From Spiroplasma alleghenense (lineage in GTDB: Bacteria > Bacillota_I > Bacilli_A > Mycoplasmatales > Mycoplasmataceae): a stretch of 64,000 nt of DNA. Positions within the stretch are counted from its first letter, which is position 1. Every line of letters starts with the position of its first letter. The position numbers and the translations under genes are program-made. This document shows, one piece after another, positions 11,812-64,000 of this stretch. The stretch is from the NCBI RefSeq assembly GCF_003363775.1, contig NZ_CP031376.1:1054001-1118000 (forward strand), in the 5' to 3' direction. The notes under the pieces are model-generated. The model ran no database searches and was not told the DNA's origin. It saw nothing but the letters and a program-made list of their open reading frames with translations.

Positions 11812-14800
11812 GTTTTAGCACAACACAATTTTACAAGGTACCATAACACAAAGATACTACAAAAGCAACAGTTTCTAGTTTTAGCACAACACAATTTTAC
11901 AAGGTACCATAACAAGCTGTCCAATAATTGTAGCAAAACTCTAGTTTTAGCACAACACAATTTTACAAGGTACCATAACCTCAATCCATTTTCTATTCCT
12001 CCTTTCTAAGTTTTAGCACAACACAATTTTACAAGGTACCATAACTATCATCAACTCCATCAGTTTCATATTTTAGTTTTAGCACAACACAATTTTACAA
12101 GGTACCATAACCAGCTGCTTCTCATACAAAGCATGGAACAAGTTTTAGCACAACACAATTTTACAAGGTACCATAACATGTTTTTAATTCTGCTACTGTC
12201 ATTTGTTGTTTTAGCACAACACAATTTTACAAGGTACCATAACACCACGATAGCAAGCAAGCACATAAAACTAGTTTTAGCACAACACAATTTTACAAGG
12301 TACCATAACAACTCATTAAAAGGTATTCGCTTTCAATTTGTTTTAGCACAACACAATTTTACAAGGTACCATAACACAACGGAATTTATAGAAAAGATTT
12401 TAAAAGTTTTAGCACAACACAATTTTACAAGGTACCATAACAATTCTTCTCATTGACAATCTCAATTTTTTGTTTTAGCACAACACAATTTTACAAGGTA
12501 CCATAACTGCTTACTGCTAAGTTTGTGTGTTCTGGAAGTTTTAGCACAACACAATTTTACAAGGTACCATAACATGCTTTTATATAAACATCTGTTAACT
12601 CTGGTTTTAGCACAACACAATTTTACAAGGTACCATAACTTACCATATCAATCAGAAAGTTTCTATATTGTTTTAGCACAACACAATTTTACAAGGTACC
12701 ATAACATAGTCCTTTATACCCTCTACATTGATCAGTTTTAGCACAACACAATTTTACAAGGTACCATAACTGTAATAAGTACTTCACTACTATTTAATAA
12801 GTTTTAGCACAACACAATTTTACAAGGTACCATAACTAGAAGTATCTATACGATTCCCTGTTAAATGTTTTAGCACAACACAATTTTACAAGGTACCATA
12901 ACATGGTGGGTCAGTTAGTATCATATCAATACGTTTTAGCACAACACAATTTTACAAGGTACCATAACTCAGCCATAGGTTCTTTTTAGGAACTGGGTGT
13001 TTTAGCACAACACAATTTTACAAGGTACCATAACGTATTAGGATACCGAATTTCTCTTACACCCGTTTTAGCACAACACAATTTTACAAGGTACCATAAC
13101 AGGTTTGAGTTCCTTTTTCAAATGGATTCTGTTTTAGCACAACACAATTTTACAAGGTACCATAACTGAAACTACTTTTTGATACTCTTCGGTTTCGTTT
13201 TAGCACAACACAATTTTACAAGGTACCATAACGTGTAATCAAAATCAATCTCTTTTTCTCTAGTTTTAGCACAACACAATTTTACAAGGTACCATAACTG
13301 TAGTTCTCTTTCGCTAACCTTTTCCATTGTTTTAGCACAACACAATTTTACAAGGTACCATAACCCACTAGCCGCTCTTTATCGGATTCATTTTGTTTTA
13401 GCACAACACAATTTTACAAGGTACCATAACACACGATTCACTACGATTGTTAATGGTGCTGTTTTAGCACAACACAATTTTACAAGGTACCATAACAAGA
13501 ACCAGGAGGTGCTAAGGTGTTATTAGGGTTTTAGCACAACACAATTTTACAAGGTACCATAACAATCAACTTCAACTCTCTCACCAAAAAGTTGTTTTAG
13601 CACAACACAATTTTACAAGGTACCATAACTACAAGAGCGATTAATACCGCCTCCATTTGGTTTTAGCACAACACAATTTTACAAGGTACCATAACTATAG
13701 TATATTTGCTCTGCCAACTTTTTATGTTTTAGCACAACACAATTTTACAAGGTACCATAACAGATTAAAGATATTGATTATCAAAAATGAGGTTTTAGCA
13801 CAACACAATTTTACAAGGTACCATAACGAGTAGCCAATATTCTTGCATATTCAAGTTGTTTTAGCACAACACAATTTTACAAGGTACCATAACAGGGAAG
13901 AAACAAGAAAAAGAACTTTAGAAGTTTTAGCACAACACAATTTTACAAGGTACCATAACATTTCCTCACAATCAACTTGGAAGTTCCTAGTTTTAGCACA
14001 ACACAATTTTACAAGGTACCATAACTAACAACAAACCCGAAATCGAACAATTCATGTTTTAGCACAACACAATTTTACAAGGTACCATAACCGATTTGAT
14101 AGAAGTAGTCCTCAGCACTTTGTTTTAGCACAACACAATTTTACAAGGTACCATAACGAGTGAACCGACCAGATGATGATTTCTATTGTTTTAGCACAAC
14201 ACAATTTTACAAGGTACCATAACCGTAATAGCAATTTTTACAAAGATAAGGGGGTTTTAGCACAACACAATTTTACAAGGTACCATAACATTCATCTTTA
14301 TTTTCAGCCATTCAATTTGGTTTTAGCACAACACAATTTTACAAGGTACCATAACGCTAAAATATTTGTTCCGGTAAAAAAAATAGTTTTAGCACAACAC
14401 AATTTTACAAGGTACCATAACAGCCAGTAAAGCGTATTAACTACGTTAATGGTTTTAGCACAACACAATTTTACAAGGTACCATAACAGTATAGCAACTG
14501 GTCGCTCATTGTTTAGTGTTTTAGCACAACACAATTTTACAAGGTACCATAACGATAATGTGCGTTATCATTAAAATTTGCGAGTTTTAGCACAACACAA
14601 TTTTACAAGGTACCATAACTTAACTGTTGGAAAGGGTATATTATTTGATGTTTTAGCACAACACAATTTTACAAGGTACCATAACGGAGTTATCGATGTT
14701 TTTTTGACAGAGAGGGTTTTAGCACAACACAATTTTACAAGGTACCATAACTATAGTAGATTTGCTCTGACAACTTTTTATGTTTTAGCACAACACAATT

Positions 14801-15081
14801 TTACAAGGTACCATAACTCTGTTATACAATAAAAGAGTCAAAGGAAAGTTTTAGCACAACACAATTTTACAAGGTACCATAACTGTATTCATGTGGATTA
14901 TTCAATTTGTCTGGTTTTAGCACAACACAATTTTACAAGGTACCATAACATTCAGGGATTATGAAGTGTCCATCAAATCGTTTTAGCACAACACAATTTT
15001 ACAAGGTACCATAACTTCAAATCGGAGATTCCAACGAACATCCTTGTTTTAGCACAACACAATTTTACAAGGTACCATAAC
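11812..15081 (-). CRISPR. Type II-A CRISPR array, 50 repeats and 49 spacers
   Basis: Fifty copies of an identical 36-bp repeat, first at 11812 and last at 15046-15081. Spacers are 30 nt except one of 29 (12706-12734) and one of 31 (13497-13527). In crRNA sense, on the minus strand, the repeat begins GTTATGGTACC and ends GTGCTAAAAC. Orientation is fixed by the tracrRNA: its antirepeat and its tail plus terminator read correctly only on the minus strand. The leader is therefore at the 15082 side and the oldest spacers at the 11848 side. The 66-bp period keeps a reading frame open on both strands, so apparent proteins here are artefacts. Two spacers (13696-13725 and 14752-14781) differ at only two bases. 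Confidence 0.99.
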
Positions 15082-17397: not shown

Positions 17398-17425
17398 ATT
17401 ATAGCAAACACCAAAATTAAGTCAA
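17398..17425 (-). promoter_or_regulatory. tracrRNA promoter inside the 3' end of cas9
   Basis: On the minus strand TTGACT (17425-17420) and TATAAT (17403-17398) are 16 bp apart. The -35 box overlaps the cas9 stop codon, so tracrRNA can be made independently of the cas operon. Transcription should start near 17392. Confidence 0.85.
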
Positions 17426-20400
17426 GATTTTTATTTTATTTTTAATAATATTTGAAGTAACTTTTTTAAAATCTTTAATCTTTGATACTGATTTAATCAT
17501 TCTCTTTTCTTCAATCTGTGATAATTTTTTGAATTCAATTAAATTAGTTGATTGAACAAAACCAACAACATATAAATTATTGTTATTTTCACCATCATAT
17601 TTAAATTTAACTTCATCATATTTATTTAATTCAAATACTTTTTCAAAAGTGTCACTTATTTTTAATTTTTCCTTGGATTTTTGGTAAGCAACCGGATCAA
17701 TAGTGATTTGATCCTCTTGCATTTTGGAAATTAATAAGGAATTAATTGCTAAAATTTTATAAACATCTAAGGTTTTGCTATATCAAACATCAAGTCTTAA
17801 TCAATTTTTACCATCTAAAAGGACTCTTTTTTTATCAGCTGAAATATTTTTGTACTTGTGAGAAATATCAAATATTTCATCTAATTTGATTGGACTCTTA
17901 TCTCGATATCTTAGGAAGCTTATTTTTGGAGGATTATCCTCATTAGATTGTTTTGTTATACTTTCCCCCAATTCATTTTTAGCAAAAATGAATGCATTTC
18001 TGGATTTTCCGCTTTCTTTATCAATTGAGTATTCATTTCAAATACTTTGTAAAAAATTAAAAGTTTTTGGGTCAGAGTCTTTCATTAATACCTGATTAGA
18101 TTCTTCATTAAATAATTTAGATATTGTTTTTCATTTTTTAGAGTCGTCGGTATAAATATCTATTTTATTAATTTTGAAGAAGTTGTCCCCGATTTTTTTA
18201 GCAGAATAAATTGTTTCATCTGATATTTTCATATTATTTTTTTGCTTAACTTTTCTGGTAAATTTGTAATTATCAAATTTTGAAATATTATCTCCAACTT
18301 GAGCCCATTTTTTGTAGAATTCAGTTTGATCAAAATCTAGGTCCAATTTTTCTTCTTCAGTTTTAGTATTAATCAAATCAAATAGTTTTTTGTTTTTGTA
18401 CTTAAATTCTGCAGCCAGAGAAATCATAATCGCATCTTCGGCATGATGTTTATTTTGCTCACGAATTTTATTTGGAATTCTAAAATAATTTTTACGCAAT
18501 TGGTGAGTAAATCCTCCATTAATTGTTTTAACTTGAATATCTAAATCATTGGTTTTGATATAGTTTTCAATATATTTTTTGACCTCTAATGTTGCGTAAC
18601 GAGTGTCTACTAAATTTCTTTGAATGAATCCTTGTTGTGTTTTAAATGAATTGATGTCCTCTTCAAATAATAAATAATTGATTTTTTTAAATAATTGTTT
18701 TCGATTTGGGAATCGCGTATCATTTTGTTTATAAATGCGATTAACTCCTTCTAAGTATTCTTTTCAAGCAACCTGACCCTTATCATTAATAATATATTGA
18801 TATGGGGTTCTATTTTTCTTGCTTTGGTTTTCTGAGTTTAATACTAATACTTTATTGCTTCGTGAATTATCAAATGAAATTGATACTGGAATAATGTGGT
18901 CTATTTCACAATAATTGTAATCTGACATAAGTCTTGTAATATCAATCTTTTCTCCACTATAAATACAGTTTCCATCTTGTTCTAAGTAATAAGACATTTT
19001 TTCTTGAAATTTAAAGTTATCAATTCCACTAGTATTTACTTTAGCGATTTCTTTCTTCATTTCAGTTCCTAAAGCTTCGTTTTGCTTTTGAATTTTGTTA
19101 ATGAATTGTCTTTGTTCAGCTGAATTTTTTTCACGCGCCATTTCAATTACAATATTTTTTATTTCTAAATCTTTTAGTTTTTGAATTTCTTTAATTACTT
19201 TTAATGATTGAATTAAAGATCTTTTCACAACTGGGGAAATATACATTTCATTAATTGATTTTCTTAAAACTGGAATAGTTTGTGTTTTACTAAAGTTTTT
19301 ATGGTAATCGGGTTGACGGCCTTGCTCGGTTAGAATTTGCATACTATTTTTATTGGTATCTCACATTTCTGCAATTACTTCATTCATAGTTTTAAAACTT
19401 AAAGCATGAGTTCCGCTATTTTTAACATAACTTAAAACTTCACAAATTCTTAAACTTAAAAAATCATAATTTAATTTTTGTAGTTGTTCTAGTCTGCTTG
19501 CATAGTCTTGATACTTAGTTAGTATTGTCAATATTTCATCAATTTTATCTTTATTTTTAAAAGCAATTCAATCAATTGGTAAATTATTATTTCTCATTAT
19601 GTCTTTAATTTTATTAATACCTTTAAATTCAGTAAAAATGGCCTTATTATTTTTATCAATTCTAAATCCAGAAATATCTTCAGGATTAACTTGGATAAAT
19701 TTAGCAATTCTATCTAATTTTAGGTTTCAAGTTTTTGGTGATTCAATACATTTAATGATTAAATCTCTTTTTTCAATATTTGTAATACCTTCTTCTCTGT
19801 TTAGAATTTTTAAGTTATTTAAATCATTTAAGGTATTAAAAATATATGCAGTTAATGATTCTTTAGGTGCTCGCGGTTGAGTTTTATCATAGGTATCATT
19901 TCCTGCAAGACGATCAAAAAATTCTTCATCCCCATTTCAGCCCCAAGGACTTAAAGTACCAGTTTTTTGATTTTCCAATCCTGGACCAGTAAAGTAATCT
20001 CTTTTACGAGTGAATATTTTAATAAAGTCATTTATAAAATCTTCGTTAATTGAACCAAAATCCTTTTGCTTATTTAAAATTTCTTTTAGTTCAGCGAGTA
20101 ATTCTTCGTTTGTAAATCTGATGCTATCATCTTTAACTCCGATTAATTTTCCATTCGCTTCATGAAACTCCTTCATTATTAATGATGGTTCGGTTACTTC
20201 CTTTCTTTCAGAAATATCAACGTTTTCTAAATTTTTACTTGCACTTTCCTCAATTATTTCATCTTCTCAAGAAAAAATCCCTCTTTTTTTAACTGCATGA
20301 TATAAAATTGCTGCTATTTCATAATTAGTTAAAAGTTCTTTTTTTCCTTTTAATTTCAGATTAAAAATCATTTCTTGAGGAATGTTGGCTTGAAAATCAT

Positions 20401-20647
20401 CATTACTTTTAATCAAATTATTTTTAATCATCAAATTAATTAAATCGGATTTACGTAAATTTCTTCTTCTTAATCTTCTTCGCGAACTTCTCTTAATTCT
20501 ACGATCTGCTCCACTTGTGCCACTACCGGTTTGACCAGCTTCTTCAAAAAGACTAACTCCTGCATCGATAATATTTAATTCTTCATCCGTAATCGCTCAT
20601 CCCACAGAGGCAATTCCAATATCTAACCCTATATTTACTTTTTTCAT
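17417..20647 (-). CDS. cas9: Cas9, small type II-A effector nuclease
   Basis: A 1,076-residue Cas9, complete when TGA = Trp. RuvC-I (GLDIGIASVGWA) carries D9; an arginine-rich bridge helix follows (about residues 47-73); RuvC-II (IVIEMAREKN) carries E502; HNH (CEIDHIIPVS) carries H584; RuvC-III (HHAEDAIMISLA) carries H735 and D738. All catalytic residues are present, so cleavage of both strands is expected. The size matches compact Cas9s (about 1,050 residues) rather than the ~1,370 of S. pyogenes. ATG at 20647 follows GGAATGGAG. First gene of cas9-tracrRNA-cas1-cas2-csn2-array; PAM cannot be read from this window. Confidence 0.97.
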
Positions 20648-23223: not shown

Positions 23224-24561
23224 TGAATATAATCTCTTATGTATAGAGGTAGAATAAAAAAATTATTCTAGTAAACTCTTTGCATAGGAGGTTTTTTAAA
23301 TGGCCAATTTAAAAGGAAATAAAAGTCACATGACTTCTTTTGATAAAAAGTTAGAAATCGCGCATGATTGATTGCAAAATCAACAAAGTTGAAAAAAATT
23401 AGCAGCTAAATACAATGTCTCATACTCGGCAGCTCGAAAATGAGCTTTGGGATACGAGCAGTTTGGGGAAGAGTATTTAAAGAGAATATCATCTAGAAAA
23501 GGACAAACTGCAGGTATTAGTAGAATTGGAGCGCCGTCTAAGCGAGATAAATTAAGTTATGAATTACATCGTTTGAAAAAGAAAAATAAGGAACTTGAAA
23601 TGGAAAACGAATTTCTAAAGAAGTTCAATCAATACCTGGAGGATTTAGAAAAAAACAACAAATAAAATATCAGTCAATTGACACTCAGAGAAAATTATGA
23701 CCGGTATCTTTTATCTGCAAAATTTTAAAAACAACTCAATCAAGCTATTATCGCTGAGTTAAAAATAATCGACCAAACTTTAATTACAAAATTGATCAAG
23801 AACTTTTAGATTTAATTGAAAGTATTTTTCAACAATACAAAGAAATTTATGGATATCCAAGGATAAGAATTGTTTTAAAAAACCAATATAATATTTCTGT
23901 TTCAGGCAAAAAAGTATATCGTTATATGCAAGAATTAGGGATAAAATCCAAGACAAGAATCAAAAAGAAACGCAAACCAAAAGAAGTAAAAATTTTAAAA
24001 AACAGAAAACACGAAAATATTGTAAATCGAAAATGAAATAAATATAGTAAGGGCGAACTTTTTGTAACCGATGTTTCTTTTTTGCCATTTTCAAATAACA
24101 GATTTGCCTATCTTAGTATTTTGAAAGACGTGAGCACTGGGTTTATTGTTGGATATGATGTTTCTTTAAGGAATGACAACAAAATCTATTTAAAAACATT
24201 GAAAATGGCTGAGAGTTATTTTGATTTTGATAAAAATATAATAATCCATTCTGATAACGGATTTCAATATACCAGTGACGCTGTTGAAATATATTGTAGT
24301 AAAAATAATATAAAAATTTCGCTGAGCAGGCCCGGTAATTCCGTTGATAACGCTGTTGCTGAGTCCTTTTTCGCTTGCTATAAAACAGAGTGGTTTAGGA
24401 AAAATTTTAAAACCTACTCAGAGGTGTATAATAATTTCATAGACTACATTAATTTTTATAACTTTAATAGAGTCATGATTAAGCACGAAAAAACTCCATG
24501 ACAAGCATGGAGTACCTTATAGAATAAAAAAACTTATTCTATACTTGACAGAATAAGTTCA
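23224..24561. mobile_element. IS-B, IS3-type insertion sequence
   Basis: A 1,338-bp element with imperfect terminal inverted repeats (TGAA..., with GTATAGA shared), flanked by 13-bp direct repeats CTTTAAGTACGGA at 23211-23223 and 24562-24574. Each end also carries a TAGAATAA / TTATTCTA hairpin. It encodes orfA and orfB on the plus strand and splits the minus-strand gene at 22704-24729. A 13-bp duplication is longer than the 3-5 bp usual for the IS3 family. Confidence 0.88.
23300..24522 (+). CDS. IS-B transposase orfA-orfB, joined by -1 frameshift
   Basis: OrfA (23300-23665, 121 residues) has a helix-turn-helix (SWKKLAAKYNVSYSAARKWA) and a C-terminal leucine-zipper-like coil. OrfB lies in the -1 frame and ends at 24520-24522; it has the HTH_21-like part SSYYRWVKNN and the integrase core with FVTDVSFLPF, IIIHSDNGFQYTS and NSVDNAVAESFFACY (D, D, E). 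The heptamer A AAA AAC at 23650-23656, in the orfA phase and just before its stop, is a classical slippery site for making the fusion transposase. OrfA start follows ATAGGAGG. Both frames are intact, so IS-B may be mobile. Confidence 0.9.
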
Positions 24562-27180: not shown

Positions 27181-27567
27181 ATGATATTTACAGACCTACA
27201 ACATAAAGAATTAATTAAGACATTTAGAGAACTTATTTTGAAAAGCCATACCATCAAGATAATTTCCCCCTTTATCACTAAACAAGCCTTTAATATCTTC
27301 AATGATGAATTTGATAGTTTTTTTGAAAATAAGGGAAAACTACAGATTCTAACCACAACTTATAATAAAGATGGTAGTGGCTTTCATTACCAGGATCTAA
27401 CACAAATTAATAAAATGGGTGATACTCAAATAAAAGTTCAAGTAATTACCAATCAAGCCCCAATTCATATGAAGGTTTATGTCTTTGAAACTCACCAAGG
27501 AGTATTTGTGATATCTGGTTCTAGTAATATGACTTCAAAAGGTCTTAGCTATGGGGAGGAACTTTAA
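27181..27567 (+). pseudogene. 5' fragment of a PLD-domain helicase gene
   Basis: Encodes 128 residues of a phospholipase-D-like domain: TIKIISPFITKQAFNIF, then IHMKVYVFETHQG and ISGSSNMTSKGLSYGE, i.e. the HxK and GSxxN parts of an HKD site. In many bacterial DEAD/DEAH helicases this domain is the N-terminal nuclease module. Here it stops at TAA directly after that module and is followed by an unrelated methyltransferase cassette. Plus-strand fragments of the helicase C-terminus lie at 34912-36151 and 41657-42747, so this is probably the severed front part. A short stand-alone PLD nuclease is an alternative. Confidence 0.6.
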
Positions 27568-27665: not shown

Positions 27666-28631
27666 ATGGATAAGTATATAAAAAGTCCCATTAATTATAC
27701 GGGCAATAAATTTCGTATTCTTGATCAAATTTTTGAAAAACTTCCCAAAAATAAGCATAAATTTATAGATTTATTTTGTGGAGGCGCGACTGTAGGGATT
27801 AACTCAAATTATGACGAGGTAATATTTATTGATAAAAATCCATACATAATAAATTTATTAAGTACACTAGCAAATAATGATATAAATAAAATAATTAATA
27901 AAATAAAGTCTATTATTCAAGAGTATAATTTATCTTACTCTGCAGAAATGGGATATAAATACTATTCTCTTCAAAAAAGTGAAATCGATAATAACGGATT
28001 GAAGTTTTTTAATAAGCAAGGGTATTATAAGTTAAGAGAAGATTATAATAGTACGAAAAACAAAAACTCATTTGATTCAAATTTGAAACTATATTTGTTA
28101 ATAATTTACGGATTTAATAATGATATTAGATTTAATAATAGCGGTGGATTTAATTTACCGGTAGGCAAAACCGATTTTAATAAAAATAACTTAAAAAAGA
28201 TTACCGAATTTAACCTTAGGGCAAAGGGCAAAAAATTTATTTTCATGCAAGGTAGTTTTGAAGATGAAGAAATTGAACAATTAGTATTTGCTGATAGCTT
28301 TGTTTATATGGACCCTCCCTATTTAATTACTACGGCCTTTTATAATGAAAATAAGGGTTGAAACCTTGAAGAGGAAAAAAAATTACTAAGTTTTATGGAT
28401 AAATTAATTAAAAATGAAACTCCATTCGCCCTCTCAAATATTATTTCCAGGGACAACGCTATAAACCAACCGCTTTTTGATTGAATTAAAGGTAATCAGG
28501 AACTAATTGAAATTCACGAGATAAACATTAATTACTCTAGTGCTAGTTACAATAAACTGGTTAGATATTCAAAGGATAAAGAAATTTTACTGATTGGAGG
28601 TTTAAAAAATGGGTTTAAAAATAGAAAATAG
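27666..28631 (+). CDS. D12-class (Dam-like) N6-adenine DNA methyltransferase 1
   Basis: A 321-residue enzyme with N-terminal PINYTGNKFRILDQIF, motif I FIDLFCGGATVG (33-44) and catalytic YMDPPYL (DPPY 216-219): the order and spacing of the Dam/DpnM group. It methylates adenine in a short site that cannot be predicted here. Its 3' end overlaps the next methyltransferase by 23 nt, and an HNH endonuclease follows, so the three form one restriction-modification cassette. The C-terminal residues past ILLIGGL may be slight run-through. Confidence 0.88.
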
Positions 28632-29628
28632 ACGATACATTGGCAGCAAGAGGAAACTTGTTGAAGAGATATATGCTATTTCTCAAAAATATTTTGGAAA
28701 TAAAAAAATCTCTTTTTCAGACGTATTCGCCGGAACTGGAATTGTGGCAAAGTACTTTTTTGACAGAGGACATGATGTAATAGTTAATGATTTGCTAAAA
28801 TCAAATTTTATAGCTTATTCAGCTTGAATTTCAAATGAAGATTATGATTATAAAAAAATTGAAAAATTACTTGAAAAATTTAATAGCTTTGATGCATCAA
28901 TTTTAAAACCCAATTATTTTTCAGATACATATGGGGATAAATATTTTTCAGTAAATGATGCAAAAAAAATCGGCTATATTCGAGATAAAATAGAGGAAAT
29001 GAAAAATAGTTTGACATTTAGGGAATACTGCATTTTATTGTCTTCGCTAATGTATACAACCGATAAAATTGCTAATACTGTTGGACACTTTGAACATTTT
29101 TTGTCTCAAAAACCCGTATACAAAAACTTCACCTTGGATAAACTCGATTTATCAGAACCAAGCTGAAACAAGGCTCTTATTTTTAACGAAGATTCAAACA
29201 AACTTGTAAAAAAAATTGAAAGCGATGTAATTTACATAGATCCCCCTTATAATGCAAGACAGTATGTTAATTTTTATCATGTTTTAGAGAATCTTGTGAA
29301 TTGAGATAAACCAAATGAATTTGAAGGCAGCTCAATGAAGTTTAAAAGAAACCATTTAAAAAGTGAGTACTCGCGTTCTAAGGCTGTATATTTTTTCGAG
29401 GAACTAATAAACAATATCAAAGCAAAATTAATTATAGTTTCTTACAATAATACATATAATGCTAAAAGCAGCGCTTCAAACAATAAAATTAAAGAATCAG
29501 AAATGATTAATATTTTGAAGAAAAAAGGTAAATTAACAGTTAAAGAGTTTGAGCATCCCTTTTTCAACTCAGGGACAACAAACTTCAATAATCACTTAGA
29601 AAAAATTTATATTTGCGAGGTAAATTAA
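28609..29628 (+). CDS. D12-class N6-adenine DNA methyltransferase 2
   Basis: A 339-residue methyltransferase with YIGSKRKLVEEIY at the N-terminus, motif I FSDVFAGTGIVA (36-47) and catalytic YIDPPYNARQY (DPPY 211-214). It is only distantly related to its neighbour. Two different adenine methylases in one operon with one endonuclease are typical for enzymes with asymmetric sites, where each methylase protects one strand. The start follows TTGGAGG. One base separates its stop from the endonuclease start. Confidence 0.87.
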
Positions 29629-29629
29629 T

Positions 29630-31018
29630 ATGAATGAATTAATACAATATTGTAACAAAATAACTAATGACGAATTACTAAATAAAAGGTATACAAGCTC
29701 AAGTGAAAAAGAAGGATTTTATATAGGTAAATTTTATAGTTTTATTAATACAAATTACCGCAACTTAATGTCTTTTGGAAAGGCATTTAGAGAATTCGAA
29801 TCAGTTGAAGGGATTGATAGATTAAAATGGCCGAAGAAAGAAAAATCTAATCAAGAAATTCACAAGCAATATAAAAATCCTATGGTTTGAACTCGCCTGT
29901 TCGAAGGCAATCAAAACACCTTTAAAAAAACTCTTAAAGGAGATTTATTTAAGCAGGTATGGGATTCAAATTTTAGTAATGACGAAAAATGAATCTTAGC
30001 GCTTTTACTTTTGCTGGACTCAAACTTGCAGAACAAGTATCAATATTTTAAGTCCTTTTATGAAGAATTTTTGAACTTAGTAAGCTGATTAAATTTAGAT
30101 AGAGAAATAATTTTCATAGAAATAAGGGAATTATTTATGAGCAGCAATTTTGAAAAAGATATACTTGCTAGCGATTTGTTTATCCTAAACACATTTTATA
30201 AAGATAAGGATTTTCTTAAGATATTTTTTAATTCTACAAGTGCTGAAAAAGAAGAGTTTAAAAATCATATATTTAAAAATTTTTCAAAGAAAGATTCGAA
30301 GCAATGTTTTATTTCAAATAAATTTTTCTCAACAAAGTTTCATATCAATTCTATAAAAGATGAATTAAAAATTCTCTATTACTCAAACTTAATATCTTTG
30401 GAATTATTAAAAAATAACGAAGATATTAAGTTTGACTTTATAAGCGAATACTGTAGAAATTTTAATTTGAATGACTTAAAGATGCTAAATTTTATTAAAG
30501 AGAATTTATTTACTATCAAAACAATTTTGAAAAATGGTTTTTCAAATTCTTCAAAATTTGAAAAAGAAGAAGAAGCAATTTGCGATTTAAAATCATTGGT
30601 TCTAGGTGATGATGAACCCCAAGAAAAAGAAGTATTTGCAACTTACATTAATCTAAGATCACCTAGTAAAAGATTTGAAAAGTTGAAACCATTTGTTCGA
30701 AAATTAAATAACTATAAATGTTTTTTTGAGAATATTAATAAATGTTGATATTTCCCAGAAAAAAAAGAAGGTAATAATTACGTCGAGATTCATCATTTAA
30801 TACCGAGAGAATTTTCAGGAAATTTTGGGTACTCAATTGAAGTTGCCGCAAATTATGTTTCTCTATGCCCAAATTGTCACAGGATGCTTCATATCGGAAA
30901 ATCGGATTTTAAGAAAGAATATATAAAGTTACTTTACCTTGACAGAAAAAATCGTCTAAAAAAATGTAAATTAGATATTTCACTAACCGAACTGGAAGAT
31001 CTATATTTTATAAATTAG
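29630..31018 (+). CDS. HNH-type restriction endonuclease of the two-methylase cassette
   Basis: A 462-residue protein read through several TGA codons. The first ~340 residues are not recognisable and probably recognise DNA. The C-terminus is an HNH nuclease: VEIHHLIPREF (H388, H389), then AANYVSLCPNCHRMLHIG with the Asn and second His pair; the CPxC pair may bind zinc. Position one base behind two adenine methylases makes it the cognate restriction enzyme; the site it cuts is unknown. Confidence 0.8.
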
Positions 31019-31366
31019 GTGTTTTTATTATAAAAAACCGTCATGTTTTATTTACAAACAATTATTAATTTCGTAGGTAATAGCTTCTTTATAAAATTTT
31101 GCTATCAGTAAAGAACTCAAATTAATGTAAATAAATTTAAATTGTAAAATTCTAATTTAATATATAATAATATGGATTAAAACAAAAAGCTTATATGGTA
31201 AGTAGAAAATCAATCTTAAGTAGAATGAACCCTGATTAATATGCAAAAAGTTTATTGAAATTTTTCAATAAACTTTTTATTTTTCTTAAATCTTCTTTGT
31301 TTCTTATCGTGATTGAGACTATAACTTTTTAGTTTTAATAAGCTAATTTTATATTTTATGTATAAA
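31019..31366. other. Intergenic region with solo IS-C end
   Basis: No gene. It separates the convergent endonuclease and Z1 genes. It contains an AT-rich stretch and the IS-C end remnant at 31219-31292, whose hairpin can act as a terminator in both directions. Confidence 0.6.
31219..31292. mobile_element. Solo end of IS-C type element
   Basis: AGTAGAATGAACCC, ATTAATATGCAAA and the TTTATTGAAA/TTTCAATAAA hairpin match the end of IS-C at 62999-63075 over about 70 bp. No transposase remains beyond the last codons. It records an insertion that was later deleted. Confidence 0.75.
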
Positions 31367-33934
31367 TTAAATTATCTCGCCACTACTTTGATTTATGTAA
31401 AAAGGATTATCATATTTTTCTTGAAATTCAGGATCTTCATTTTTTGGAATTATCATAGCGATTGTTGGTGCTATTTTTAAAAATACCTTTTCTTCATCAT
31501 TTTTTGAAATTATTTTTGAAAAAATGATGAATAGAACCGGGCCGTCTTTCATGGTTCTAATTTTGGCTTTTTCAGTACTTTTAAAAAACTTATCGTTTTT
31601 TGAATCTTCGAAAGATTTTTTCTCAAAATTTTCTAATGAAGTCGTAAGAATCGATTTTAGTCTAAAAGTTTGTAGATTTAACTTTTCATCAAATTTAATA
31701 TTTTCACTAAAAACAGATTTACTCGATAGGTTAATATTAAATTCTCTTAAATTTATAGTTCCATTATTATCCTTGATGTTAGTAGATATTACGACCTTTC
31801 ATTTTTCAAAATACTCTTTGTTTAGCTTTATTTTATCCATTTTTTCCTTAATGTGACTTAAGTTTTTATTTGAAACTTCGGGTAATTTTAATTCTGATAA
31901 AAAACCAGAAATACTGTTGTAGCTAATATTTTCATAGATTTTAAAATATTTATTTTTGACATAAACATTATTTTGGTTAATAAAATTTTTAGTTTTTTCT
32001 AAATTATATTCATTTGTATGGTCATCCTTAAAATAAGTAGAAATAAAATTTCTTCCACTAAATGAAACTTTATTGACCTCAATTGCCCCCTTTATTTTAT
32101 TTAATGAACTGGGCTTCATACCATTTGAAAATTTCTCAATTTTAATTTGAATTTGCTCTGGGGTAAGATCTCTTTCATTCATTTCCCTTAAGTCATTTTT
32201 TAAATTTTCAAAACTTGAAAATACTCTAAAAAACATATCCAAAATAATTTCGCTTGTGAATATTTTACACAAGTCTATATATTCTGTTCTATAGCCAAAT
32301 CATCGACACATTTGCATTAAAGTATCTGCCATTTTTGTATTTCTATAGAAAATTGAGGTTAATAGACACGGAACCGTCATTCCTCGAGAAAGTTTATAAC
32401 CACCTACTCAAACTTGAAATTCCGCATTATTTTCATCCGCAAAACCATTTGAAGAGTTTTTAATCACTATTTTAACTTTTTCATAAAGAAAAATATTTTT
32501 AATTTCTTCCCATACCCTTATCCATGAATATTCATTTATCTCTGAATACTCTTTATAAAAAATAGTTTCAAATTCTTTTTCAATATTTGCGTTATTTATA
32601 TTATCTGAATAATATTTTATTAGTTCTTTAATTACTTTAACTATTTCGTCTTGATTTTTATTTACATGGTGAATATTTATCATCATAGTTTTAACTTTAT
32701 TAATTCTAACTTCCTCATTAAGTTCTCTTAATTTTAAAATCGAACCAGAAATTATAAATCTTTGAAATGCTTTTTTAAAAACCTCATTATCAGATAATTT
32801 TGCCTTTCTGTCTTTGAAAAACGAGTTTAAATTTTCTATTTCTTCGGTTTTTAAAGGAATCATTGAGTACTTTGAGTTCTCACTTATTTCCAAAAACTTT
32901 TGATAACCTGTGTAATATTTACCAGGATTTAATACTGTTATAAAGTCATCTGGATATAAATTTATGTTATGAGAAGTTCTATCTTTATCTGTTAATAAAT
33001 TTGCAAAAGGCGAGGCAGTATACCCAATATAGCAGCATTTAGGGAAAACTGTGGCCAGTTTTGTAATTTGCTCATAGGTTTTACTTACAACACTTTTATC
33101 AGTTTTTGTTCCCGAACTTTCCAAAGATGCCTGATCGGCCTCATCATCTATTATTAGAGTCTTAAAGTTTATAGGTTTGTCGTTACCTTCATTTCCGAAT
33201 ACTGATCTAACATTTTCAAAATAATCATTTATTTTTTTTAAATTTGCAGCTGTTTTTTTTATTATTCAAATGTTCTTTAACTGAATTTCGTTAGCCTGGT
33301 TATTATGAAATGTGTCTTTTTTAATATCACCATTTTTAGTTGGAAAATTTATTCCTTTACTAAGAAAGTGCATCCAGCCACCGTAATTATCCTGAACTTT
33401 TTCATCCGGATGACCCAAGGCAGACTTGGCTCTATTTAAGGTTTGCACTCTTAAATCTTCCAGCAACCCAGTCAAAATAATAACTCTCTTATATCCTAAA
33501 TCAAAGGCCAAGCTGGTTAAAGCCATAAAGTTTGTTGTTTTACCAGACTGTATGTCACCCAGCACCAGGCCCTTAATTGAAAATTTTTCTAGTTCATCGC
33601 TAATATTTATTTTGCTTCCTAAATCAAGAGTGGATTTCTTTATATCTTCAACATCTTCAAACATCACTTCGTTAGAATCGAGTAAATTATTAATATAATC
33701 GTTAAATATAGTCAAATAATTTCTATTGATTGCTTTAACTTCATAGTCATTTTTTTTATCTAAAGTAAATGTCTTTGATTCATCTCTTTCAATTGATTCT
33801 AAAACTTCTTCTTCGGTACAGTTCAATTTTTCAATCACCTGTCTTATTGCTCATGACTTGGCTCCCTCTTCTGTATTATGTCTTAATCCAAACGCGTAAT
33901 GTTCAGTGAATAGCCTCGCTATTTTATCTCTCAT
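31367..33934 (-). CDS. Z1-domain ATPase/helicase-like protein
   Basis: An 855-residue protein of the Z1 family. Walker A is GDIQSGKTTN (126-135), Walker B is LIIDDEADQ, then YIGYTASPFANLL, GGYKLSRGMT and QMCRWFGYR, all hallmarks of Z1, a helicase-like domain found in restriction-type operons with MORC ATPases, DUF4420 nucleases and AIPR proteins. None of those partners is visible here. The N-terminus overlaps the gene at 33924-34517 by 11 nt, so the three minus-strand genes 34856-31367 form an operon. Probable defence role by family and context. Confidence 0.85.
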
Positions 33935-34517
33935 TTATATACTCCTTTGCTAATTGGCTTGACTTAAATTTATCAAAACCAAAATCGTGATTTAAAATTT
34001 CCTTTGTTTTATTTTCGCCTAATTTTTTTGCTTGAAATTTTATTTTTTCAAGTTGTGTTGAAAAATTATCTGAAGGGTTTTTGAAAACTGTTAAATTTAA
34101 ATTATTACAAAAAATATTGCCCGATACCTCAAAATTCAGATTATTTCCATTAACTAAAATTGAATAAAGGAGTTGCATGGTCATCGGAGTTTTAAGTTCA
34201 ATTGAATGCTTTAGAAGCAACATTTCATGGAAATGCAAATTATTAAAATTAAAACTTTTACAAAAATTTGAATAATTTGTGATTTCTTGAATTTGTTTAG
34301 TAAATAACTCAGTCTTAAAATCAGCAAAATCTGATTTGATAAGTATTTTATCTTTTTTGATCAGAAATATCTCTCCATTAACTATTTTATCAGTAATTAT
34401 TTTTTTAAACTTTTCAGTATCAATTTTTACTCCGTAAGCTTTTAATAGTATTTGGAATATAGTATTTAAGTTAGTCTGCTTATTTTGAAAAATTTCTTTA
34501 TCAATAGTATCTAACAT
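33924..34517 (-). CDS. Unknown protein, Z1-operon partner B
   Basis: A 197-residue soluble protein without recognised motif: helical N-terminus, a beta-rich middle (NNLNFEVSGNIFCNNLNL), and a charged C-terminus. It starts one base upstream of the previous stop region (34515-34517 against stop 34518-34520) and overlaps the Z1 start, so it is translationally coupled to both. It is a candidate recognition or nuclease partner of Z1; no catalytic motif is evident. Confidence 0.7.
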   Translation of the reverse strand: MLDTIDKEIFQNKQTNLNTIFQILLKAYGVKIDTEKFKKIITDKIVNGEIFLIKKDKILIKSDFADFKTELFTKQIQEITNYSNFCKSFNFNNLHFHEMLLLKHSIELKTPMTMQLLYSILVNGNNLNFEVSGNIFCNNLNLTVFKNPSDNFSTQLEKIKFQAKKLGENKTKEILNHDFGFDKFKSSQLAKEYINER

Positions 34518-34856
34518 CTATAAAGATCTCCATAAATTTGATAATAAAAATTCTGAGACCGTAGTACCTTTTGCCTCCAATTCGCTTTCCAATATGTAAT
34601 TTTCAGCAAGGATGCCCCGCGATGTATTAGTCTGAATAAGCCCTATAATAATTAAACAATCATTTTCGTTTTCATATTTAGACCTATTATTCATTATATT
34701 TTTAGCTAATTCATTTTTCATTCTAACCAAAACTCTAGAGGCTCTGGGATTTAAGTCAATTCCATGTGCATTTACATTTAGACTAAAATAGAAATCAGCT
34801 TCGTACTCCTTGTAGGATTTTGAATCTATAAAACCTTTTAAAAAACCTAAATTCAT
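34518..34856 (-). CDS. Unknown small protein, Z1-operon partner A
   Basis: A 112-residue protein beginning MNLGFLKGFIDSKSYKEYE, with a beta-rich central part (CLIIIGLIQTNTSRG). Not recognised. The start has a ribosome site (GTGAGG) and a TATAAT box near 34878 on the minus strand, so it is probably complete although the helicase-tail junction begins only ~55 bp upstream. First gene of the Z1 operon. Confidence 0.65.
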   Translation of the reverse strand: MNLGFLKGFIDSKSYKEYEADFYFSLNVNAHGIDLNPRASRVLVRMKNELAKNIMNNRSKYENENDCLIIIGLIQTNTSRGILAENYILESELEAKGTTVSEFLLSNLWRSL

Positions 34857-34911: not shown

Positions 34912-36151
34912 ATGCGAAACCGATTATTATTCGATTGAACATGCATCAAGTATTAACCAACTTTTAATCACCAATAACTATGCTAGTGCTATTTTAACCA
35001 GTGATTCAGAACAAGTTAGTGATCGGCAACAAATCTTAGCTGGCTTTGCTAGTCAAAAAATCAACTTCTTATGTGTGGTTGATATTCTCAATGAAGGAGT
35101 TGATATCCCCAATATTAACAATGTTATCTTTGCTCGTCCTACAAATTCCACCACCATCTTCTTACAACAACTGGGAAGAGGATTAAGAAAACAAAGTGAC
35201 AAAGTCTTAAATGTCTTTGATTTAGTCGCCAATATAAATTCTCCCAATTATTGATATTTACGACTAAATCAATTAACTAAATTAACCCCAAATATGACCA
35301 GTTATGGATATGACATCTTAGAATTAGATAATGTTTGTTTAATCTATGATAAGTTAAGTTACCAAGAAGTAGTTGGTAGTTTAGAGAAAAAATGAGCTAA
35401 AACCTATCAGCTTAATTTAACCCAGTATGATATTAAAAAGACTAAAGCCAAAGATGAGTTAACAAAAGATGAGGTTATCCTTTACTACTTATTTAATAAT
35501 AAAAACTTATCTCATCAATGATGTGGGGTAATTGGGAGTTACTTAAATAAACCCAATACCTTTATAGACGAAAAAACTTTAAACCAAATGGATTTAACAA
35601 GTTGAGAAAAAGACTTTCAGGGAGTTAGGTTTACTAGGTTTATGGATAAGTATAAAGATGTAGAACAACTGGGATTAGAAGATATGGTTAAGTTGGTAAA
35701 ACATGAAATAGGTAAAAATAAAACCAAAACCAATTCCCTGCTTTATAATTATGGCTCACAGGTTTTGGGGGGAGATAGCCTTATAAAAAATGACTCCGTG
35801 ATGTTCAAATTAATTCAAGGTAAGTTTTTAGCTAAAGCAGTTAAAAAAGATGGTAATTACATCTTAATGTCTGGTTCGCATTTTAAACCCCGAGGACGAG
35901 AAAACTACAATAGTGAGGACGAGAAATTGTGAGATAAATATTGCCAAAATATTGAAGACAGAGTTAGTCAAAATCCTGATATCTACCAGATAAAAAAAGA
36001 TATAGTATTTTTTGATCCTAGTAAAATGTGTCGCTTTGTGGTTGGAGGAGATTCTGGTTTTAATGAAGAATTTTTTCTTGAAAATCCTAAAATTAAAATC
36101 AGAAATTATATTTGTCAATTAATTAAATCAGAAATTGAAAAGTATAGTTAG
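34912..36151 (+). pseudogene. 3' fragment of a helicase gene, copy 1
   Basis: The plus frame encodes the C-terminal part of an SF2 helicase: DYYSIEHASSINQLL (motif IV region), LCVVDILNEGVDIPNINNVI (motif V), and QQLGRGLRKQSDKVLN (motif VI), then ~300 residues of helicase-associated sequence to the stop at 36149-36151. There is no start codon, motif I or motif II. Positions 35060-35640 are about 95% identical to 41657-42247, while the last ~160 residues are only distantly related to that copy. A terminator follows. Confidence 0.85.
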
Positions 36152-41656: not shown

Positions 41657-42747
41657 TTTCCAACTTCTTATGTGTTGTCGATATTCTCACCCAAGGTGTT
41701 GATATCCCCAATATTAACAATGTTATCTTTGCTCGTCCTACAAATTCCACCACCATCTTCTTACAACAACCGGGAAGAGGATTAAGAAGACAAAGTGATA
41801 AGGTCTTAAATGTCTTTGATTTAGTCGCCAATATTAATTCCCCCAATTATTGATACTTACGACTAAATCAATTAACCAAATTAACCCCAAATATGACCAG
41901 TTATGGATATGACATCTTAGAATTAGATAATGTTTGTTTAATCTATGATAAGTTAAGTTACCAAGAAGTAGTTGGTAGTTTAGAGAAAAAATGAGCTAAA
42001 ACCTATCAGCTTAATTTAACCCAGTATGATATTAAAAAGACTAAAGCCAAAGATGAGTTAACAAAAGATGAGGTTATCCTTTACTACTTATTTAATAATA
42101 AAAACTTATCTCATCAATGATGTGGGGTAATTGGGAGTTATTTAAATAAACCCAATACCTTTATAGATGAAAAAACTTTAAACCAAATGGATTTAACAAG
42201 TTTGGAAAAAGACTTTCAAGGAGTTAGGTTTACTAAGTTTATGGATAAGTATAAAGATGTTAACCAGTTAGGGTTTGAGGATATGGTGAAGGTTGTGAAG
42301 GCTAAAAGTACAACTAGTTCAAAAGAGTTTACCTTGCTATATAATTATGGTAAAAAAGTTTGTCCTGAAATTTTATATATAGCCCCAGGTACAACTATAT
42401 CTAGAAAAGTTGATCAGCAATATCCAGCAACTTTAGTTAAAGAAGAAATTGGTTATACTTTAAAATCAAGTTCTTACTTTAAACCCCAAGGCAGAATCCG
42501 TGTTAACAATAAGGTAACCCAGTTGTGAGAAAAACACTGTCATGGTGAAAGTAATTTAGTTGACAAAGAAAAAAACATCTTCTTACTAGAAGAAGATGTT
42601 TACTTTGATAGACAAAATATCTTAGGTCAGTTTGTCATTGGGGGTAATGCTAGTTTTCCTATTGAATTTAGAATTGATGAATATAACATGTCAATTTCGA
42701 AGTGATATGTTAAACAACTAAAAGATATTATTGGGGGTTGCGGTTAA
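41657..42747 (+). pseudogene. 3' fragment of a helicase gene, copy 2
   Basis: Second copy of the helicase C-terminus: LCVVDILTQGVDIPNINNVI and GRGLRRQSDKVLN, then the same ~190 residues as copy 1, then a diverged tail ending at 42745-42747. The QQLGR motif reads QQPGR here, a change in motif VI that would damage the enzyme. Homology to copy 1 begins at about 41657; the 30 bases before it are unrelated, so the fragment has no start or ATPase motifs of its own. Confidence 0.85.
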
Positions 42748-62606: not shown

Positions 62607-62999
62607 TACTGGACTCCTTACTTTTCTTTTTAGTTTTAGTTAAATTAAATGGTAATTTATCACAGAGGTTATAGTTAATTTCAATTGAGTTTAAACAATT
62701 ACAATAACCATTTTTTAATTCTGTATAGTTTAAGTAATCAGGGTTAATCAACAAACAAGCAGAGATTAGACCATCCACTTCAACTAATACTTTAACAATA
62801 TTTTCATCATAGGTTTGTTTAGCCAATTTAGCTTGAGTTTCTAATAAAGCTATTTGATCACTAATTTGTTTGATATCCTCTTCCTTATTAAAGTCAAGAT
62901 ATAACTGGGCAGCCAAATTGTATTTAGCCAAATCCTTATCTTTTAATTTCATCGCTTTTAAATAAAGTTTATCTCTATCAGCTTCAACCCTATTAACTA
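62578..62999 (-). pseudogene. C-terminal tail of a PTS permease gene cut by IS-C
   Basis: The frame runs from the IS-C end into a ~140-residue tail (RVEADRDKLYLKAM..., coiled coil, then SLNSIEINYNLCDKLPF) that ends at 62578. It resembles in character and position the coiled tail of the locus 2 PTS, so it is probably the end of a third beta-glucoside permease. IS-C lies directly upstream; the rest of the gene is beyond the window or lost. Confidence 0.6.
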
Positions 63000-63000
63000 G

Positions 63001-64000
63001 TAGAATGAACCCATATTAATATGCAAAGAGCTTTATTGAAAAATTTCAATAAGCTTTTTATTTTTTTTAAATATATATCAGTTATTTCAATCAATGACAT
63101 CAGTAACGTAGGCATTAATATCTGTATATTCATTATTATGAATTGTTCCTTTCTTTAAAAGAGCGTGAAAGCTTTCAATTACAACGTTATCACTACATTG
63201 ACCGACTCTTCCCATAGAAATTTTGATCCCTTCTGCATGACATCTATTTTTGTAAGCATTTGAGATATATTGTGATCCGTGGTCAGAATGAATTATAATT
63301 CCGTTTGTGCTAGAATTAATTTTTTTTATTCTAATCACTGCAGCATTAAAATTATCTAAAACCAATTTTAAATCGTTAAATTTAGAAATTTGAAAATCTA
63401 TTATTTGTTTTGTACAAGCATCAATAATTGTTGATTGATACATTCTTTTTCCATTTAAAACTAAGTATGTTACATCTGTATATAAAACTGTAAGTTCCTT
63501 TTGAATATTATATTTTCTTTTAACCAAGTCTGGAAAATCTCAAATTTTATTTACTTTAGCTTTTCGTCTTTTGTAAATATATTTCCTGACATATTTTGAA
63601 ATAATTCCTTGTTCTTTCATAATTCTAAGTACTTTTTTATGATTAATTCTTGGTAAACCAATTGATTCGTAGTATTCGTTAGTAAATTTGGTTAATTGTC
63701 TGTAACCAAACTGTTCCTTGTTTTCTTTAAAAATTTTTCAAAGCGTATCAATATGAAATTGATCTTTAATAATCGTTCAGTCTTTATTTTTGAAACGATT
63801 TCAATAAGAACGCTTTAATTCACAAACTTCAAGTAAAATTTTTAACTTATGATCTTTTAATTCCTCACGAATGAATTCTACTTTTTGTCTTCTGTTGACT
63901 TGTAGAATTCATGGAGCTTTTTTAAAATTTCATATTTTTCCTCCAAAGAATCCATTTCTTTTTTTTGTTTATTTAGTTCCTTGTTGGGAGAAATGCTATT
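63001..64000. mobile_element. IS-C, IS3-type element (partial, right side outside window)
   Basis: The left end begins near TAGAATGAACCC at 63001; a ~70-bp copy of this end occurs alone at 31219-31292. The interior encodes orfB and the end of orfA on the minus strand. A TTTATTGAAA/TTTCAATAAA hairpin at 63031-63053 overlaps the orfB stop. The second end and any target duplication are not in the window. Confidence 0.85.
63033..64000 (-). CDS. IS-C transposase orfB and 3' part of orfA
   Basis: OrfA ends at a TAG at 63878-63880 with the coil LEEKYEILKKLHEFYKSTE. OrfB reads in the -1 frame from the overlap near 63900 to the TAA at 63033-63035 and is a typical IS150-group integrase: YWNRFKNKDW, FGYRQLTKF, then YTDVTYLVLNG, IIIHSDHGSQYIS and SDNVVIESFHALLK carrying D, D and E. 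The AAAAAG run before the orfA stop is a plausible slip site. The visible part is uninterrupted. Confidence 0.85.

What the first reader, a model, noticed from the sequence alone, without database searches (positions are those of the whole stretch)
31367..34856. Z1 ATPase operon without its usual partners
Z1 proteins usually go with MORC ATPases, DUF4420 and AIPR proteins. Here two small unknown proteins are tightly coupled to it instead. Either a minimal new Z1 system or highly diverged partners.
Basis: partly seen in the sequence, partly recalled or inferred. Interest (0 to 1): 0.58.

Follow-up and report, generated by a model that had tools for sequence, protein, structure and literature searches.

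The report
Three-gene Z1 ATPase operon with SSB-like partner
A mollicute genome carries a compact, recurring three-gene unit that pairs a motor-like ATPase of a known phage-defence family with a small protein shaped like a single-stranded-DNA-binding protein, instead of that family's usual partner genes.

Summary
Read with code 4 (TGA=Trp), window 31367-34856 (- strand) holds three coupled genes: A (112 aa), B (197 aa) and Z (855 aa, Z1 domain, E=1e-50).

The unit recurs. A, B and Z occur together in 7 of 60 genomes of the window's family and in none without the others. These Z proteins form one clade (100/99), sister to MzaC of the MZA defence system and separate from 15 other mollicute Z1 proteins. 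MORC, DUF4420 and AIPR profiles match no adjoining gene at the seven operons. A and B show no relation to those partners or to the small gene upstream of MZA loci.

A folds (AlphaFold, pLDDT 86) as an SSB/PriB-like OB domain. Its profile ranks five chromosomal ssb genes first among 318 ORFs. It lacks the acidic SSB tail and has an invariant Trp near its C-terminus. B remains unassigned. No nuclease or methylase is constant nearby.

Best reading: a mollicute-specific Z1 variant, probably defensive, in which an SSB-like subunit brings a Z1 ATPase to single-stranded DNA. Operon and predicted fold are shown; defence role and mechanism are inferred.

The parts
34518..34856 (-). Gene A, 112 aa: SSB/PriB-like OB-fold protein without acidic tail, C-terminus ...NLWRSL (invariant Trp)
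   Evidence: ORF; AlphaFold pLDDT 85.9, pTM 0.78; Foldseek SsbA/SsbB/2hql, TM 0.5-0.6, though the first-ranked row is an unrelated chain; VIA-align Z up to 9.4, nearly all of 50 rows SSB or PriB; profile finds chromosomal ssb genes
33924..34517 (-). Gene B, 197 aa: fast-evolving protein of unknown fold, no conserved catalytic residues (3 invariant columns: I, I, L)
   Evidence: ORF; alignment A3; no credible Pfam, PADLOC, NCBIfam or PHROGs family; AlphaFold pLDDT 54.7
31367..33934 (-). Gene Z, 855 aa (TGA=Trp): P-loop ATPase with Z1 domain, MzaC-like over its length, distinct clade
   Evidence: Pfam Z1 1.2e-50; PADLOC MzaC 2.2e-42 and Helicase_II 3.6e-38; NCBIfam MzaC 187.7 bits, below the equivalog cut-off 1500; hhalign to canonical Z1 100%, columns 74-840; tree
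27181..27567 (+). N-terminal remnant (PLD domain, residues 1-126) of a PLD-SF2 helicase that is intact next to the same operon in L037 and L045; not part of the three-gene unit
   Evidence: tblastn with the intact L037 and L045 proteins; RE_NgoFVII/PLDc_2
34931..36136 (+). C-terminal remnant (about residues 428-825) of the same broken helicase, starting 75 bp from gene A; part of it is repeated at 41661-42350; not part of the three-gene unit
   Evidence: tblastn and self-blastn; repeat D1

Best explanation
This is a self-contained three-gene variant of Z1 systems found in one mollicute family, most likely an anti-invader (phage or plasmid) system. Gene A makes an SSB-like OB-fold protein that would bind single-stranded DNA exposed by an invading or replicating element. 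Its conserved C-terminal Trp motif, in place of the acidic SSB tail, would dock it to Z and/or B. B would be a lineage-adapted adaptor or specificity subunit. Z, a P-loop ATPase related to MzaC and to the N-proteins of CglI-type restriction systems, would be loaded at that DNA and use ATP to translocate along it or remodel it, stopping replication or exposing it to nucleases encoded elsewhere. Shown: operon, conservation, clade, motifs and the predicted OB fold of A. Inferred: ssDNA binding, complex formation, ATP-driven translocation and the defence role.
For: Recurrent coupled A-B-Z operon in 7 of 60 family genomes, each gene found only with the other two. Z keeps Walker A GDIQSGKT, IDDE, the YTA.PF motif, KLSRG and QM.RW.GYR in 7 of 7. 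Z aligns over nearly its whole length with MzaC-type Z1 proteins. A: OB-fold model, SSB/PriB matches, ssb genes top-ranked, hhalign 81.8% with SSB. The window's genome has a separate ssb, so A is an extra copy (L171:11928-12404). Context: the window is a defence island with Cas9, two GmrSD proteins, DCM plus a MutH-type nuclease, D12 methylases plus HNH, and PDC-S14 and PDC-S37 candidates. The G026, G067 and G165 loci also lie near methylase or AIPR genes. Related N-proteins are fast ATPases that act with a nuclease in restriction (PMC4267653, passages).
Against: No experiment. No nuclease in the unit and none constant within about 20 kb. Close neighbours in G165 include a beta-galactosidase and an RpiR-type regulator, and in G141 a PTS gene and a RecD-like helicase, so defence context is not universal. 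A matches Pfam SSB only weakly (2 of 7 members, best E 0.027, the window's own copy none); its best Foldseek row is an unrelated chain at a similar E-value, and lysyl-tRNA synthetases (other OB folds) also rank high. A's net charge is near zero, so DNA binding is not evident from charge. B's fold is unknown.
Confidence: 0.45

Rival explanations
1. Reduced or diverged MZA system: A and B are remnants of MORC, DUF4420, AIPR or MzaA and the unit works as an ordinary MZA system.
For: Z is MzaC-like over its length and the clade is sister to MzaC-type Z1. Small genes also precede MORC in some MZA loci.
Against: hhalign of A and B against MzaA-like, MORC, DUF4420 and AIPR profiles: at most 0.3%. A is a predicted OB fold whereas the aligned small gene of MZA loci is a different, conserved family. 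No MORC, DUF4420 or AIPR match in any adjoining gene of the seven operons. All seven keep A and B, which argues against random decay.
Confidence: 0.1
2. A CglI/NgoAVII-type restriction system whose nuclease and methylase are encoded nearby: Z is the N-protein and a PLD protein plus a methylase complete it.
For: PADLOC Helicase_II match. PLD-SF2 helicases with an NgoFVII-type PLD domain lie next to the operon in 2 of 7 loci and as fragments in the window. DNA methylases lie within about 20 kb in several loci.
Against: The PLD-helicase family occurs in 3 of 7 neighbourhoods and is broken in the window while A-B-Z is intact. The cytosine-methylase family occurs in 3 of 7. Neither is in the operon.
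Confidence: 0.15
3. Replication, repair or maintenance module of a mobile element (SSB-like protein, helicase-like ATPase, small accessory protein) rather than defence.
For: SSB-like plus helicase-like gene content; the operon sits beside broken genes and a 74-nt repeat shared with a transposase-like stretch. Unrelated contexts in G141 and G165.
Against: tblastn with A or B found nothing among 72,556 plasmid records; Z matched 47 plasmid and 7 phage records at under 60% identity, and the 5 plasmid Z1 proteins examined score far better with the MzaC-type profile. A scan of viral contigs with the Z alignment confirmed no relative. No shared integrase or replication gene showed up among the seven neighbourhoods.
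Confidence: 0.2
4. The operon acts together with MORC, DUF4420 or AIPR proteins encoded elsewhere in the genome.
For: The window's genome has a second Z1 locus with MORC- and DUF4420-type neighbours. HATPase_c_3 matches over cut-off in 5 of 7 genomes. AIPR in 2 of 7, about 6-8 kb from the operon.
Against: DUF4420 matches in only 2 of 7 (G000, G141), AIPR in 2 of 7 (G026, G165), and G109 has none of the three over cut-off; G026 has no DUF4420 and only a sub-threshold HATPase match near position 2.9 kb, where gyrB is expected (label recalled).
Confidence: 0.1

Closest known systems
MZA (MzaABCDE) anti-phage system
   Same: Z1 ATPase MzaC-like along its length (hhalign 100%, 25% identity; NCBIfam MzaC 187.7 bits), multi-gene operon
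   Different: No MORC (MzaB), DUF4420 (MzaD) or AIPR (MzaE); SSB-like A and unknown B instead; score far below the MzaC equivalog cut-off of 1500; separate clade
CglI / NgoAVII restriction systems (N-protein: SF2 ATPase plus Z1)
   Same: ATPase with Z1 domain; the PLD-type nuclease domain family RE_NgoFVII occurs nearby in 3 of 7 loci, broken in one (PMC4267653 passages)
   Different: No PLD-B3 R-protein or methylase constant in the unit; two small proteins instead
Putative Z1 systems type I / II of PMC9523054 (section 11 read)
   Same: Z1 protein of about 900 aa as the core gene
   Different: Those share a PD-(D/E)XK protein and a cytosine methyltransferase; here neither is in the operon
MORC-type operons with SF2 helicase (PMC2292703, section 4 read)
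   Same: Helicase with a C-terminal domain carrying a DT..Q..R.FG type motif
   Different: No MORC and no restriction-fold nuclease in the operon
SSB / PriB family (for gene A)
   Same: Predicted SSB-type OB fold, profile similarity to mollicute ssb genes
   Different: No acidic C-terminal tail; below the Pfam SSB gathering score; C-terminal helix with invariant Trp

Membership tests
MZA (MzaABCDE) | MzaC-type Z1 ATPase at the equivalog cut-off | tested here: not met
   NCBIfam NF041933 187.7 bits, cut-off 1500; the MZA-like L067 protein also misses it at 494 bits, so the cut-off is strict
MZA (MzaABCDE) | MORC-type ATPase MzaB beside Z1 | tested here: not met
   0 of 7 loci match the MORC profile
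MZA (MzaABCDE) | DUF4420 PD-(D/E)XK protein MzaD beside Z1 | tested here: not met
   0 of 7 loci; the Pfam DUF4420 matches in G000 and G141 lie beside other Z1 genes
MZA (MzaABCDE) | AIPR protein MzaE beside Z1 | tested here: not met
   0 of 7 loci by profile; AIPR in G026 and G165 lies about 6-8 kb away
MZA (MzaABCDE) | Small upstream gene related to that of MZA loci | tested here: not met
   hhalign A or B against that gene 0.2-0.3%
CglI/NgoAVII type | ATPase with P-loop and Z1 domain | tested here: met
   Pfam Z1 and invariant P-loop
CglI/NgoAVII type | R-protein with PLD nuclease and B3 domain in the operon | tested here: not met
   operon holds only A, B and Z; PLD-helicase near 3 of 7, broken in the window
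CglI/NgoAVII type | Cognate DNA methyltransferase in the operon | tested here: not met
   none in the operon; one cytosine-methylase family in 3 of 7 neighbourhoods
SSB family (gene A) | SSB-type OB fold | tested here: met
   predicted model and structural matches; a prediction, not a solved structure
SSB family (gene A) | Pfam SSB gathering score | tested here: not met
   best E 0.027, 2 of 7 members, window copy none
SSB family (gene A) | Acidic C-terminal tail | tested here: not met
   tails printed against the acidic tails of the ssb genes
SSB family (gene A) | Binds single-stranded DNA | not testable with these tools
   needs a binding assay
Anti-phage defence system | Protects a host against phage | not testable with these tools
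   needs expression and plaque assays

The most novel reading that the evidence does not exclude
A nuclease-free branch of Z1 immunity: an SSB-like protein that has traded the acidic tail for a Trp docking motif detects or coats invader single-stranded DNA and loads a Z1 ATPase that stops replication by ATP-driven remodelling, with B as a rapidly evolving sensor.
Probability: 0.25. Interest if true: 0.75.

Novelty: new variant of a known kind. Interest (0 to 1): 0.52.

Why it matters
The Z1 ATPase is a shared core of several restriction-like and abortive systems, yet what it does is poorly known. A natural three-gene unit with no nuclease, MORC or AIPR gene in the operon would let the Z1 ATPase be studied nearly on its own. 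It would also link Z1 motors to single-stranded DNA, a target not suggested by the known partners that I read about. It is small enough to clone after recoding TGA.

Tried and rejected
Housekeeping role of A as the genome's only SSB: rejected, since a separate ssb gene lies at L171:11928-12404. A and B as DUF4420, AIPR or MORC fragments: not supported. An obligatory neighbour nuclease: all-against-all BLAST of 262 neighbourhood ORFs from 7 genomes gave no family in all seven besides Z. At its threshold (1e-6) even A appears split into groups of 5 and 2, and B into three groups of 2 with the G067 copy outside any group, so weaker shared families could be missed. The abutting 334/340-aa gene upstream of A in G109 and G135 is homologous between those two (E 2e-33) but was not grouped with any ORF of the rest and has no Pfam match. 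PDB sequence searches with the Z, A and B profiles found nothing credible: Z none, A three rows with best E 0.04 (dehydroquinase), B two rows with best E 0.2. B's fold was not searched because the model is too poor. By eye B's N-terminus looks like a winged helix; this was not tested. The genome-contig scan returned 27 relatives and none with A or B: no B match at all, and for A only two weak hits, E 0.015 inside a Z1 protein and E 0.069. It gave no mollicute record, so it cannot count absences there. In the class sample (395 genomes, only two candidates per genome scored) the best match outside the family has 374 bits against 1087-1143 for the clade members in that sample. Of 13 such loci fetched, 8 carry MORC, Z1, DUF4420 and AIPR, 4 have other neighbours, and one is too short to tell.

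Literature: searches found no paper describing a Z1 operon with an SSB-like gene (titles, abstracts' starts and counts of the listings were seen; three papers were opened). The library lacks most subscription papers, and one search was swamped by journal codes.

Full report
The window lies in a single-contig genome of 1.336 Mb (G000) that reads TGA as Trp. Under table 11 the Z1 gene is broken; under table 4 it is one 855-aa ORF with five TGA codons, one of which encodes the invariant Trp of RW[FY]GYR.

The unit. On the minus strand, A (34856-34518), B (34517-33924) and Z (33934-31367) abut or overlap. In six other genomes of the family the same three genes lie in the same order and overlap: A/B by 16-19 nt, B/Z by 1-17 nt, and in L040 by more, depending on the start chosen. 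Searching all 60 family genomes with the Z alignment gives seven matches at 1068-1143 bits, then a gap to 216. The A profile gives seven matches at 126-145 bits, then at most 25. The B profile gives exactly seven. The three sets are the same seven genomes: G000, G026, G067, G109, G135, G141 and G165. Thirty-seven genomes of the order outside the family that hold a Z1 domain have no such Z; the best is 168.5 bits. The order was sampled, 298 genomes, and the alignments were built from the seven, so the bit scores are partly by construction. Single-sequence searches with the window's A and B found full-length relatives in only one other genome, G026; the other five came from the neighbourhood layout.

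Comparison with usual Z1 loci. Of 27 relatives from named genomes, 18 carry MORC, DUF4420 and AIPR profiles and 23 carry MORC; several are cut by contig ends and three (L089, L090, L092) have none. The profiles were built from some of these loci, so this is partly circular; NCBIfam matches L067's genes to MzaB to MzaE independently, below its strict cut-offs. Of 15 non-clade mollicute Z1 loci, 12 match MORC and 4 DUF4420, and none matches A or B. Among 13 class loci, 8 show all four MZA-type genes. A tree of 39 Z1 proteins places the seven in one clade (100/99) beside the MzaC-type clade, apart from the 15 other mollicute Z1 proteins; the long branches of L057, L038 and L041 make the details of that other group unsure.

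Gene A. The model (pLDDT 85.9, pTM 0.78, seven sequences) has the SSB strand order. Foldseek E-values are modest (6.6e-4 for an unrelated chain, 7.4e-4 for B. subtilis SsbA), with lysyl-tRNA synthetase OB domains also high. VIA-align gives Z up to 9.4 with SSB and PriB entries filling almost all of 50 rows. Sequence agrees: among 318 ORFs from eight 19-kb stretches at 12-31 kb of eight genomes, the A profile's five best hits are the five ssb genes found there by a seed search, E 5e-7 to 1.4e-4, the next hit 0.11. hhalign A against SSB is 81.8%, against 0.1-0.3% for B, MzaA-like, MORC and DUF4420. Invariant columns of A are N2, G8, S14, V42 and W109; all seven end in W-[RK]-x-[LF] with at most one more residue.

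Gene B. It is conserved as a gene, not in residues: three invariant hydrophobic columns, length 164-229 aa, pI 5.1-9.2. No family matches credibly. I infer that it is not an enzyme.

Gene Z. It is related to MzaC along its length. Invariant motifs include the P-loop GDIQSGKT, IDDE and QM.RW.GYR. N-proteins of CglI and NgoAVII, also SF2 plus Z1, hydrolyse ATP at high rate and work with a nuclease partner (passages of PMC4267653). Iyer and colleagues described a third type of MORC operon with such a helicase and a restriction-fold nuclease (section 4 of PMC2292703 read).

Neighbourhood. The window holds Cas9 (17417-20647), a CRISPR-like array, two GmrSD proteins, methylases, an HNH protein, a DCM/MutH-type pair and two PADLOC candidates. 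The operon lies between pieces of a PLD-SF2 helicase gene that is intact beside the operon in G026 and G067. The break left A, B and Z open, so the helicase does not seem needed for their retention. In G141 and G165 neighbours include sugar-metabolism genes and a RecD-like helicase, though G165 has restriction-type genes and AIPR within about 5-16 kb.

Mechanism. Shown: the conserved operon, its clade, the motifs, the predicted OB fold. Inferred: A binds single-stranded DNA, A's Trp tail docks to Z or B, Z moves on or remodels DNA, and the outcome is defence. I put the whole statement at 0.45, because the defence role rests on relatives and island context only.

Noticed in passing
window 11812-15081: CRISPR-like array: 50 copies of one 30-mer, 47 of 49 spacings exactly 66 nt, about 2.3 kb from the Cas9 gene at 17417-20647.
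   Followed up: partly
window 27666-31018: Two overlapping D12 adenine methyltransferases followed by a 462-aa HNH protein (PADLOC type IV match): looks like a restriction system with paired methylases, lying within the broken helicase gene.
   Followed up: partly
window 34931-36136 and 41662-42735: Two copies of the C-terminal part of the same PLD-SF2 helicase, 92% identical over 693 nt, flank a block with a PDC-S37-type helicase: possible module exchange by recombination at this gene.
   Followed up: partly
G000:C1:1288119-1292222 (within L057:4024-8271): Second Z1 locus of the same genome: MORC-type, short Z1 (520 aa) and DUF4420-type genes, with a very long branch in the tree.
   Followed up: partly
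L166, L167, L169, L170: Class-level genomes with a Z1 of about 910-934 aa flanked by unassigned genes of about 370, 665-705 and 310 aa, none matching MORC, DUF4420 or AIPR profiles: a further Z1 context.
   Followed up: no
L042:9839-10843 and L043:3377-4399: Homologous 334/340-aa gene of unknown family just upstream of A in two genomes: possible accessory gene of a subtype.
   Followed up: partly
window 31219-31291 and 62999-63072: 74-nt repeat, 89% identical, just downstream of Z and beside an ORF at 63033-63620 related to the transposase-like ORF at 23926-24522: possible insertion-sequence scar.
   Followed up: no
L181 (Terribacillus plasmid) and L182 (Helicobacter plasmid): Z1 proteins with an AIPR gene but no annotated MORC or DUF4420 neighbour, or with a HaeIII-type restriction pair: Z1 without its full partner set also occurs elsewhere.
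   Followed up: partly
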